A stretch of 64,000 nt of DNA from Hirundichthys speculiger (Eukaryota; Chordata; Actinopteri; Beloniformes; Exocoetidae). The notes beneath the pieces are model-generated. The model worked only from the letters and a program-made list of their open reading frames with translations. It searched no databases and was not told the origin of the DNA. A program made the translations under genes and the position numbers. Within the stretch, counting starts at the first letter, position 1. Every line of letters starts with the position of its first letter. Below, one piece after another: positions 16,321-41,639 of this stretch. The stretch covers positions 62,001 to 126,000 of the forward strand of contig JAGFBZ010000363.1 in the NCBI GenBank assembly GCA_018398805.1, read 5' to 3'.

Positions 16321-16465
16321 GCGCTTTCCACGAATTCGGTATCTTGCGGTACCTGTACTTCGCAGATTTTGGGTATTGGGTAATGGGTGGTGTGACCACC
16401 CATTACCCAATACCCAAAATCTGCGAGACACCAGTACCGCAAGATACCGAGTTTGTGGAAAGCGC
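16321..16465. repeat. Long hairpin, 71-bp arms, inside Harbinger element
   Basis: The arms 16321-16391 and 16395-16465 are inverted copies with about 7 mismatches and a 3-nt centre (GTG). The centre-proximal 35 bp, rich in GGGTATTGGGTAATGGGT, are perfect; mismatches cluster mid-arm. CCCATTACCCAATACCCAAA also occurs at the left terminus (16181-16200), so the hairpin probably arose by inverted duplication of subterminal DNA. Confidence 0.88.
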
Positions 16466-25635: not shown

Positions 25636-27076
25636 TAAAGTTAGAATCAAAATCAGAATCACTTTATTGCTAGGTACGATTTTACACATACGAGGAATTT
25701 GTTGTGGCGATGATGGTGCATGTAATTAAGGGAAAAAATATAACAATGTAAACTAAAAATATTGCAATATAAATATCTATACACAAGCTGTTTTTTGCAT
25801 TTAGGGCACAGTGACCAAGAGTGATGTGCCATGAAAATGTGCAAATGAACAGGTAGTGCGGACTGAGCGTTAGTGTGACACATAGTGTTCTGAGTTCTGT
25901 CAATGTGACAGCAGTGTCAGAGTCAGAGGTGGAGAGTGAGGGGTGTCGGGGGGTTATGGGTCTTATTGATAAGGCTGACAGCAGACGGGAAAAAACTGTT
26001 CTTGTGGCGTGAGGTTTTGGTCTTGATGGTCCGCAGCCTCCTGCCAGAGGGGAGTTACTCAAAGAGTTGGTGTCCGGGGTTAGGAGTGATCAGCCACAAT
26101 CTTTCCTGCACGCCTCAGGGTCCTGGAGGAGAACAGGTCCTGAAGAGATGGGAGATTGCAGCCAATCACCTTCTCAGCTGACTGAATGACACGCTGCGGC
26201 CTGCTCTTATCCTTGGCGGTGGCAGCAGCGTACCAGATGGTGATGGAGGAGGTGAGCCATCAATGATGGCTGTGTAGAAGTGCACCATCATTGTCTTCGG
26301 CAGACTGAATTTCTGCAGCTGCCTCAGGAAGTACATCCTCTGCTGTGCTTTCTTGATGAGGGAGCTGATGTTCAGCTCCCACTTAAGGTCCTGGGAGATG
26401 ACGGTTCCCAGGAAGCGGAAAGACTCCACAGTGTCAATAGTGGAGTCACAGAGGGTGATGGGGCGGCAGGTGGGGCTGAGTTCTTCCTTTAGTCCACAAC
26501 CATCTCCACTGTCTTTAGAGCGTTGAGCTCAAGGCTGTTCTGGCTGCACCAGGTCACCAGGTGGTCAACCTCCCACCTGTAGGCGGACTCATCCCCATCA
26601 GAGATGAGTCCGATGAGGGTGGTGTCATCCGCAAACTTCAGGAGTTTGACGGACTGGTGACTGGAGGTGCAGCTGTTTGTGTACAGGGAGAAGAGCAGAG
26701 GAGAAAGAACACAGCCCTGGGGGGATCCAGTGCTGATGGTCCGTGAGTTCGAGATGTGTTTTCCCAGCTTCACATACTGTTTCCTGTCAGACAGGAAGTC
26801 TGTGATCCACCTGCAGGTGGAGTCTGGCACGCTCAGCTGGGAGAGCTTCTCCTGTAGCAGAGTAGGGATGATGGTGTTAAAAGCAGAGCTGAAATCCACA
26901 AACAGGGTCATGGCGTAGGTTCCTGAGGAGTCCAGGTGCTGGAGGATGAAGTGGAGGGCCGAGTTGACAGCGTCGTCTACAGACCTGTTGGCTCCGTAGG
27001 CGAACTGCAGGGGGTCCAGGAGAGGGTCAGTGATCGGCTTTGAGGTGTGAGAGTACAAGGCGCTCAAAGGTCTTCA
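25636..27076 (-). mobile_element. Rex1-like LINE, 5'-truncated, largest RT in window
   Basis: Minus-strand element from near 27076 (METFERLVL-like start of the RT segment) to a 3' tail at 25636, whose inverse, GATTCTGATTTTGATTCT, is typical for this LINE group. RT motifs A, B and C are all readable. After the catalytic core come KKAQQRMYFLRQLQKFSLP, then SAEKVIGCNLPSLQDLFSSR and TLRRAGKIVAD, then a 3' UTR of about 300 bp. Disruptions are a stop and frameshift near 26489-26430 and a small deletion near 26235. The 5' end is folded back (see 27038-27185). Confidence 0.88.
26489..27067 (-). pseudogene. Rex1-like reverse transcriptase core (fragment)
   Basis: 192 codons open. Domain order: LDPLQFAYGANRSVDDAVN (residues ~18-36, fingers), LFVDFSSAFNTI (~54-65, motif A with the first catalytic Asp), STGSPQGCVLSPLLF (~113-127, motif B), and LLKFADDTTLIGLI (~142-155, motif C with both Asp of the FADD box). 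All three catalytic Asp positions are intact. The endonuclease domain and the 5' half are missing, and the frame stops after EMVVD with the thumb domain in another frame, so it cannot produce a complete protein. This would be a target-primed reverse transcriptase acting in the nucleus. Confidence 0.85.
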
Positions 27077-27105
27077 TGAGCGCCTTGTACTCTCACACCT
27101 CAAAG
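27038..27105. repeat. Perfect foldback, 29-bp arms
   Basis: 27038-27066 and 27077-27105 are exact inverse copies across a 10-nt spacer. Both arms are the same stretch of Rex1-like coding DNA (LVLSHLK region), once in each orientation. This marks the junction between the LINE body and its inverted 5' piece. Confidence 0.93.
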
Positions 27106-34305: not shown

Positions 34306-34777
<472 letters not shown>

Positions 34778-40189: not shown

Positions 40190-40235
40190 TTAACCTTTGT
40201 GTCGTGTTCGTTTCTCCCCCCTTACTTTAGTGCTC

Positions 40236-40253
40236 CCGGTCAAATTTGACCGG
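40236..40253. repeat. Subterminal palindrome of piggyBac element
   Basis: Perfect 18-bp palindrome CCGGTCAAATTTGACCGG, 42 bp inside the left end. Related sequences near the right end (41354-41370 and 41532-41547) suggest these are transposase-binding subterminal repeats of the family. Confidence 0.85.
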
Positions 40254-40501
40254 CCTGTTTTAACCGCTTCTACATTAACAGAAAAACCACTGCTTAACAC
40301 CAAATTTTATTTAACTCCTTTTGAAGCTGTAAACAATGTCTCAGACCACTGGTTTATATGAATAACTGCAGTGAATATACATAAAATAGACACAGAAATA
40401 GTAAATTGTATTCCAAAATTATCATTTATTATAAAAAGAAAGTAACAAAAATCAAAACAGTGACCAAATTCACACATCAACATGAGCCTATCATTTGTAT
40501 A

Positions 40502-40537
40502 TGTGTGTGCGTGTGTGTGTGTGTGTGGGGGGGGGGG
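40502..40537. repeat. (GT)n followed by a G run
   Basis: A GT microsatellite (one GC interruption) runs straight into 12 consecutive G, inside the piggyBac element. Confidence 0.93.
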
Positions 40538-40664
40538 CTGTGTCTTCACATGTGTCTTCACACACCGGAGTGGCATCCTAACAATATTTTCTACTCTTGC
40601 TCTTCCTCCTCTTTCCTGGGTGGATGAATACCAGAGCAAATTGCCATCCTTGCACTGGAATATC

Positions 40665-41108
40665 ACGGGACAGCTCCCACCGCTACACCGGGCTGTGAGC
40701 CGGAACGTGATTGTTCAGCACCAGACAGCTCCCACCACTTCTCCGGGCTGTGAGAGCTGTCCGGTGCTGAACATTCACGTTCAGCACCGGACAGCTCTCA
40801 CCACTTCTCCGGGCTGTGGGAGCCCACCATTTCTCTGGGCTGTGGGAGCTGTCCAGTGCTGAACATCCACGTTCAGCACTGGACAGCTCCCACCACTTCT
40901 CTGGGCTGTGGGAGCTGTCCGGTTCAGCACTGGACAGCTCCCACCACTATTCTGGGCTGTGGGAGCTGTCCGGTGCTGAATGTGAATGTTCAGGACCGAA
41001 CAGCTCCCACCACTACTCTGGGCTGTGGGCTCAAACGTGAATGTTCAGCACCGGACAGCTCCCACCACTACTCCGGGCTGTGGGAGCTGTCCGGTGCAGA
41101 ACGGGAAT
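40665..41108. repeat. Tandem array of hairpin-forming ~65-bp repeats
   Basis: About seven units, several partial. The unit runs GTTCAGCACCGGACAGCTCC, CACCACTTCTCCGGGCTG, TGGGAGCTGTCCGGTGCTGA, ACATTCAC. Each full unit is itself a stem-loop: roughly 21-bp arms around a ~16-nt loop. Unit starts are near 40665 (partial), 40713, 40779 (with an internal deletion and re-start at 40824), 40871, 40923, 40988 and 41043. The array also folds on larger scales because neighbouring arms are complementary. ORFs through it just repeat a SGLWELSG-type peptide and are not genes. Confidence 0.9.
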
Positions 41109-41258
41109 GTTGTCAAATAATTCAAAGGGATCATATCCAGATCAATGTTGTCTTCTATTTCTGAGACATCGTCCTCTATTTCTGGTTGAACTTCAATCCC
41201 CTGTTCATCAGGTTGAAATAAAAGGTCCAGAGCTTCTCTGACAAGAAATCATCTGATC
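41108..41258 (-). pseudogene. piggyBac transposase N-terminus remnant
   Basis: Minus-strand frame from about 41255: FLVREALDLLFQPDEQGIEV, then QPEIEDDVSEIEDNIDLDMI and PLNYLTTFPF. The REAL-L-F opening and the acidic E/D-rich stretch are typical of piggyBac transposase N-termini, which precede the catalytic domain. The position ~300 bp inside the right end suits a 5' UTR plus start. After about 50 codons the frame runs into the hairpin array, so the catalytic DDD domain and the Cys-rich C-terminus are absent. No intact start codon in this frame. Confidence 0.58.
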
Positions 41259-41639
41259 GGGTGCCTAGTCTACGTGTTGGTGGTGGTGTATTTGTGGTTG
41301 TGTACAATCTGATGGTGAACACAATCTAGGATCACCCATTAATTTCCTATGGTGGTCAATTTTGACCGGGAACACCACAGGTGTTACAAAGTTGAATGAA
41401 CTACTCAAAATTCAGAGAAAATGGTGATCAACAATTATATATGTTCAAATGGCTAGTGTGGAGGATATCATAAGGCCCTGAGACAATCAAATGTAGAACA
41501 CAATATTTATGATTGATGGAAGCAGGAAATTGGTCAGATTTGACCGGAACACGACAGAAAGGTTAATCTACATTTAAAGCTTAATTTTTGGTCACAAGAT
41601 TTTTGCCAAGACCAAATAAAATGAGGTTGTAACTACAAG

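What the first reader, a model, noticed from the sequence alone, without database searches (positions are those of the whole stretch)
40665..41108. Tandem array of stem-loop repeats inside a piggyBac element
About seven head-to-tail units of ~65 bp, each an almost perfect inverted repeat (~21-bp arms, ~16-nt loop), sit inside TTAA-bounded piggyBac ends. A transcript would be a string of short-hairpin-like structures, a possible small-RNA source or a barrier to replication. The array lies where most of the transposase should be, so it may have expanded from one small palindrome. I know of no described piggyBac family with such an array, but I have not searched.
Basis: partly seen in the sequence, partly recalled or inferred. 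Interest (0 to 1): 0.75.

Follow-up and report, generated by a model that had tools for sequence, protein, structure and literature searches.

The report
Hairpin-repeat array inside piggyBac jumping genes
A broken fish-type jumping gene carries a row of mirror-image DNA repeats, and copies of it with such rows lie in many places of the same genome, so the repeats are real cargo of a transposon family and show how hairpin DNA is copied and flipped, although nothing indicates that they have a function.

Summary
The array is real. It occupies 40667-41111 inside a TTAA-bounded element at 40190-41566. It has eight loop cores; only three units are full 66-bp hairpins.

The host genome (1.04 Gb) answered late. 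It holds 3,152 matches to the repeat arm against 4 for the reversed control. Of 40 array loci (39 fetched plus the window), 39 have a piece of this element within 120 bp of the array and 25 have both termini. The array is cargo of a multi-copy, non-autonomous piggyBac family.

Copies in the same genome suggest the history: a long copy with a DDE transposase and no array (L168); an internally deleted copy without array (L172); type B with an [inverted 53 bp - array - second direct copy] module; type A, including the window, with a further deletion. Flipped units and spacers and matched arms fit replication template switching; this is inferred, not shown.

No function is indicated; no small-RNA data were available. 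Tandem repeats inside DNA transposons are known, including piggyBac-superfamily Pokey. This is a new variant of that kind.

The parts
40190..41566 (-). whole non-autonomous piggyBac-type element (gene sense on the minus strand), type A
   Evidence: TTAA at both ends, 19/20 bp matching inverted ends; paired ends found in 25 of 39 fetched array loci
40190..40209 (+). left terminal inverted repeat with TTAA (3' end in gene sense)
   Evidence: 1,310 genome matches at up to 2 mismatches against 20 for the reversed control
41547..41566 (-). right terminal inverted repeat with TTAA (5' end in gene sense)
40190..40500 (-). 3' untranslated region and 3' end of the element
   Evidence: hits of 90-99% identity in the fetched loci that have it; K2P on the first 300 bp of 26 elements, median 2.4% to consensus, window 1.7%
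40552..40666 (-). segment S2: transposase codons 109-139 of P0003 numbering (VIFQCKDGNLLWYSSTQERGGRARVENIVRM) fused to a short tail that resembles the 3' end of the transposase gene; the DDE domain between is missing
   Evidence: 30 of 38 residues identical to P0003; the join is inferred by comparison with L168
40667..41111 (+). array of 8 palindromic units, all in one sense (3 full 66-bp units, 5 truncated)
40750..40801 (.). junction palindrome U2|U3: perfect 23-bp arms, 6-nt spacer ATTCAC (inverse of the commoner GTGAAT of the window)
40842..40893 (.). junction palindrome U4|U5: perfect 23-bp arms, 6-nt spacer ATCCAC; junctions with this spacer recur in other type-A copies
41112..41281 (-). 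remnant of the transposase N-terminus (interrupted frame)
   Evidence: BLASTP to P0003, 32 of 58 residues, 1e-17, for 41048-41248, which includes some array; reading to 41293
41282..41566 (-). 5' untranslated region and 5' end; most fetched copies with both pieces have about 300 bp more near 41274-41281
   Evidence: split hits at right 163-170

Best explanation
The element is one copy of a multi-copy, non-autonomous piggyBac family in a teleost-like genome; its array is inherited cargo. Steps suggested by comparison of copies: (1) a copy with a full DDE domain exists without an array; (2) an internal deletion joined codon 139 to the 3' end of the gene; (3) downstream of the first S segment a module arose, consisting of an inverted copy of the first 53 bp of S, a palindromic repeat array and a second direct copy of S (type B); (4) a further deletion removed linker, first S and inverted S, giving type A, to which the window belongs; (5) both types spread as TTAA-bounded elements. 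Inferred: step 3 and the later gain, loss and flipping of units come from polymerase slippage and template switching at hairpins, and movement is driven in trans by a related transposase. The array itself is most likely neutral; if transcribed it would form long double-stranded RNA.
For: 39 of 40 array loci (window included) have an element piece within 120 bp; types A 11, B 21, other 8 of 40. TTAA at both ends in 23 of 26 paired elements, window included. Of 7 loci that I chose from the protein search (not at random), 6 lack an array (L168-L170, L172-L174; L168 has one isolated arm-like 13-mer) and L171 is type B. L172 has S joined to the 3' end without the module; L168 keeps the sequence between. 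First and second S copies differ at the same positions across elements, e.g. one column C in 20 of 20 first copies and A in 27 of 31 second copies, so the duplication precedes the spread. All 16 type-B elements measured have units in both senses; 9 of 10 type-A elements have one sense only, L146 being the exception. Spacers occur in both orientations within the 10 type-A elements, 23 against 12. Of 151 junction cores, 25 have perfectly matched 22-nt arms. Template switching between inverted-repeat arms is reported to homogenise arms and invert spacers (PMC8604942, passages) and to create and keep hairpins (PMC8794818, abstract and start of the introduction).
Against: The order of steps is read from single copies (L168, L172), not from a dated tree. 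The seed sequence of the array is unknown; a similarity between unit spacer and flanking codons was not above shuffles (11% as good). L143 has an array without element parts, so a source outside piggyBac is not excluded. Of the 151 junction cores, 38 have six or more arm mismatches. Inverted-spacer junctions of the window copy recur in other type-A copies, so they were probably inherited and are not separate events; 12 of 44 substitutions against the working unit are at CpG, where independent decay can imitate pairing. Sampling was of listed exact arm matches on contigs C6-C287.
Confidence: 0.85

Rival explanations
1. A pre-existing dispersed palindromic minisatellite was captured by the element from elsewhere in the genome, as ribosomal spacer repeats were by Pokey.
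For: L143 holds 12 arm matches and no element part in 6.5 kb. The unit is GC-rich (60%) against 39% for the rest of the element. Repeats from ribosomal spacers are reported for Pokey and capture of a tandem repeat is the model given for miDNA4 (review).
Against: 39 of 40 sampled arrays have element parts within 120 bp, and S occurs in both orientations in 18 of 21 type-B loci, which points to an event inside the element. Only one candidate donor was seen, and it may itself be a remnant.
Confidence: 0.25
2. The array is functional: its transcript is a string of hairpins that feeds small-RNA silencing, or the array helps the element to spread.
For: Strong folding; perfect junction hairpins of 23 bp; many copies (a rough 300 arrays from 3,152 matches divided by 10.2 per fetched locus).
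Against: Five of eight units in the window are truncated and loop-centred arms carry mismatches. Unit number and sense differ between copies. Array-free siblings also exist in numbers: of 85 exact left-type ends on contigs C4-C287 (of 100 listed), 64 have no listed exact arm match within 3 kb, an upper limit for array-free ones. No Rfam match. No small-RNA data.
Confidence: 0.07
3. An assembly or cloning artefact.
For: Palindromic tandem repeats are hard to assemble (general knowledge).
Against: Arrays with element parts stand in 38 of 39 fetched loci on 26 contigs, with no N in those 39 loci.
Confidence: 0.02

Closest known systems
Pokey (piggyBac superfamily, Daphnia)
   Same: piggyBac-superfamily element inserting at TTAA, with repeats that vary its length, and deleted copies (PMC4912750, passages)
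   Different: Pokey repeats come from ribosomal spacers and sit in elements of 4.5-10 kb; here the units are palindromic and, in type B, bounded by inverted and direct copies of the element's own coding segment, in elements of 1.4-2.9 kb
Tetris (foldback transposon, Drosophila virilis)
   Same: apparently non-autonomous DNA transposon carrying internal tandem repeats (PMC4079207, abstract and section list)
   Different: Tetris repeats are about 220 bp and lie in its terminal repeats; here the termini are about 20 bp and the array is internal; kb-size satellite arrays as in Tetris were not seen in the 40 loci (longest about 1 kb, L160)
miDNA4 and Xstir MITEs (Xenopus)
   Same: tandem repeats riding on a non-autonomous element (known here through reviews PMC12628747 and PMC9659126, passages; originals not read)
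   Different: miDNA4 is given there as Tc1/mariner; neither is described in those passages as a hairpin array
BrickBuilt (Porphyromonas gingivalis MITE)
   Same: minisatellite inside a MITE (PMC4596501, abstract and section list)
   Different: bacterial, 23-bp unit
piggyBac elements of other fishes (P0005 Gadus morhua; P0009, P0010, P0014 Pleuronectes platessa)
   Same: related N-terminal region and acidic linker
   Different: no array peptide in 26 of 26 proteins P0001-P0026, though the search could find only short proteins

Membership tests
piggyBac superfamily | TTAA target-site duplication | tested here: met
   TTAA at both ends of the window element and in 23 of 26 paired elements; no empty site was compared
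piggyBac superfamily | DDE transposase of the DDE_Tnp_1_7 family in the family | tested here: met
   L168, with the same ends: PF13843 1.3e-56, PDB 6x67 1.3e-60; the shorter P0003 scored 21.1 bits, below Pfam's cut-off of 22.4
piggyBac superfamily | transposase domain in the window copy itself | tested here: not met
   only N-terminus, codons 109-139 and a short tail remain; no Pfam or PDB match for the window pieces; the copy is non-autonomous
MITE (miniature inverted-repeat element) | short, non-coding, multi-copy, with terminal inverted repeats | tested here: inconclusive
   multi-copy and without transposase domain, but 1.4-2.9 kb with transposase remnants
foldback transposon | long terminal inverted repeats, often with internal tandem repeats | tested here: not met
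   terminal repeats of about 20 bp; the 53-bp inverted copy is internal
satellite DNA | long arrays independent of a mobile element | tested here: not met
   longest sampled array about 1 kb (L160); one array of 40 without element parts; a sample, not the whole genome
microRNA or other known RNA family | match to a curated RNA family | tested here: not met
   0 matches at gathering score in the window
hairpin small-RNA source | phased 21-24-nt reads | not testable with these tools
   no read data
template-switch palindrome | homogenised arms and inverted spacers between related copies | tested here: inconclusive
   both patterns present, but shared within type A and partly at CpG sites; 38 of 151 junction cores have six or more mismatches

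The most novel reading that the evidence does not exclude
A single replication template-switch accident inside a transposon made a self-perpetuating palindromic module (inverted stem, hairpin array, second stem) that keeps expanding, flipping and repairing its own arms while the transposon carries it to hundreds of sites, and whose double-stranded transcripts also feed silencing of the whole piggyBac family.
Probability: 0.1. Interest if true: 0.75.

Novelty: new variant of a known kind. Interest (0 to 1): 0.42.

Why it matters
Many dispersed copies of one palindromic module, with array-free siblings and a long relative in the same genome, are a natural replicate experiment on how hairpin DNA mutates: unit gain, loss, inversion and arm repair can be counted against the age of each insertion. 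It also adds a clear vertebrate piggyBac case to the question of how minisatellites are born in transposons.

Tried and rejected
My first reading, before the genome answered, was that the array had replaced the acidic linker between the transposase N-terminus and the DDE domain. In relatives that linker varies in five-residue steps (17 full linkers in 26 proteins). The fetched copies rejected it: type B keeps the linker and holds the array elsewhere; the window's position is best explained by a later deletion.

Array encoded as protein: the 136-residue frame 40754-41161 gave 39 candidates and none with E up to 1. Origin of the unit from neighbouring codons: not better than shuffles (11%). The matched arms of the window as independent recent events: given up after comparison with other type-A copies. 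Pfam and PDB gave nothing for the window's transposase pieces.

Not in print: eight literature searches on this question (one search returned no paper) showed no title on a piggyBac family with a hairpin array. I saw listings and the passages named in this report, not full texts; passages of two further papers (PMC2884549, PMC3212995) held none either. The library lacks most subscription papers and Repbase was not available. Searches were on miDNA4 and template switching.

Full report
What is there. The window element runs from 40190 to 41566. It begins and ends with TTAA and its first and last 20 bases match as inverted repeats in 19 of 20 places. The array fills 40667-41111. Eight loop cores lie in one sense; U2, U6 and U8 are full 66-bp units and the rest are cut at one or both arms. 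The array is 60% G+C against 39% for the rest of the element. Both strands fold far better than shuffles (z -16.1 and -18.4, 0 of 100 shuffles as good). The strongest are centred on junctions between units: 40750-40801 and 40842-40893 have perfect 23-bp arms around a 6-base spacer (-48.0 and -48.6 kcal/mol alone, against -46.6, -45.0 and -36.8 for the loop-centred U6, U8 and U2). The global fold pairs distant units, so 'a string of short hairpins' describes only the span-limited fold.

What the element is. On the minus strand the array is flanked by transposase remnants. 41048-41248 matches P0003 over 58 residues (32 identical, 1e-17) and 40574-40666 matches its residues 109-139 (30 of 38 identical over the aligned stretch). 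P0003 and its kin come from a search that returned 25 proteins at E up to 10, the query among them, four of them named to Gadus morhua or Pleuronectes platessa. A copy in the same genome with the same ends, L168, has a 430-residue frame matching PF13843 (1.3e-56) and the transposase chain 6x67_C (1.3e-60), followed by a 149-residue stretch in another frame. The family is therefore piggyBac; the window copy is non-autonomous. That the host is a teleost is inferred from these names.

How common. The arm pattern has 1,558 + 1,594 matches at up to two mismatches in the 1.04-Gb assembly, against 3 + 1 for the reversed control. The 100 listed exact matches fall into 39 loci, all fetched. They average 10.2 matches (window 11), so about 300 arrays is a rough figure, biased low because the sample is rich in exact matches. 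The end pattern has 1,310 matches against 20; both ends of an element can match. Of the 100 listed exact ends I used the 85 on contigs C4-C287; 21 have a listed exact arm match within 3 kb, a lower limit for array-bearing ones. The transposase search scored 150 of 2,658 candidates and listed matches of which only the first, L168, reaches past residue 153 of P0003.

Where the arrays sit. With the window, 40 array loci were classified by one script: 25 with both termini, 12 with one, 3 with none; 39 with some element piece within 120 bp. Eleven are type A (array directly beside the N-terminus, as in the window), 21 type B, 8 other. An earlier script with other criteria paired the ends in 26 of 40. 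L143 has an array and no element part in the 6.5 kb fetched. L142 appears split by another insertion, and L141 and L152 hold fragments.

Architecture of type B, in gene sense: 5' end - untranslated region - N-terminus - acidic linker - S1 - inverted S (first 53 bp) - array - S2 - 3' end. S was found in both orientations in 18 of 21 type-B loci, and some type-B copies lack S2 or the 3' end. In L132 and L133 the module occurs twice. S1 and S2 differ at the same columns across elements, so the duplication is older than the spread. In L137 and L171 the array begins at both ends with a similar unit in opposite orientation, so the module there is a large palindrome; in L150 the second end is less similar.

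Order of events. L168 keeps the DDE region. L172 lacks it and has no array; its codon 139 is followed by sequence like that at the 3' end of the L168 gene (that these are the last codons is inferred from the ending of P0009). L169, L170, L173 and L174 are array-free copies with a shorter S. Type B adds the module to an L172-like form. Type A lacks linker, S1 and inverted S. On the first 300 bp of the 3' end, ten type-A copies differ less among themselves (median K2P 2.4%) than from the rest (4.7%), which fits type A as the younger set. The order rests on few copies.

How the array changes. All 16 type-B elements measured have units in both senses, 9 of 10 type-A elements in one sense only. Spacers occur in both orientations even within the mostly one-sense type-A arrays (23 and 12). 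Of 151 junction cores in 39 of the 40 loci, 25 have perfect 22-base arms, 25 one mismatch and 38 six or more. In the window the two perfect palindromes differ from each other at two arm positions, and both differences are mirrored in the other arm; chance placement alone gives 0.0016 before base matching. Against this: junctions with the same inverted spacers recur in other type-A copies, so they were probably inherited, and 12 of 44 substitutions against the working unit are at CpG. Arm homogenisation with spacer inversion is the reported footprint of polymerase template switching (PMC8604942, passages; see also PMC8794818, abstract and start of the introduction). I judge this mechanism likely but not shown.

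Function. None is indicated. Truncated units, mismatched loop hairpins, varying unit number and array-free siblings speak against a conserved RNA product. No small-RNA data were available. If the locus is transcribed, long double-stranded RNA is expected from the fold.

Known relatives. Repeats inside non-autonomous transposons are well documented: Tetris (abstract), BrickBuilt (abstract), Xstir and miDNA4 (through reviews). Within the piggyBac superfamily, Pokey carries ribosomal-spacer repeats (passages). Eight searches (listings seen) showed no piggyBac family with a palindromic array and inverted-direct duplication module; Repbase and most subscription papers were not searchable. Verdict: new variant of a known kind.

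Noticed in passing
window 34316-34766: About 50 copies of a 9-bp unit (ACAGGGCGT type), bounded by short inverted flanks (agcaggtta / taacctgct); perhaps another minisatellite inside a small element.
   Followed up: no
window 16360-16426: Perfect palindrome with 32-bp arms and a 3-base spacer; the outer flanks look inverted too, perhaps a foldback element.
   Followed up: no
window 27038-27105: Perfect palindrome with 29-bp arms at the edge of a reverse-transcriptase fragment (26489-27067, RVT_1 3.2e-22).
   Followed up: no
L143:2958-3500: The only one of 40 array loci without any piggyBac part; it also contains an unfamiliar stretch between units. Possible donor or remnant.
   Followed up: partly
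L132 and L133: The inverted-S/array/S module is present twice in tandem, so the module itself can duplicate.
   Followed up: partly
P0002-P0024: The acidic linker of the fish piggyBac transposases varies in steps of five residues (16, 21, 26, 31, 36; 19 in another group), a coding minisatellite (17 full linkers of 26 proteins).
   Followed up: partly
L168:1623-2912: A long transposase copy with the family's ends and no array; the tool reports one in-frame TGA in the match. Described only.
   Followed up: partly
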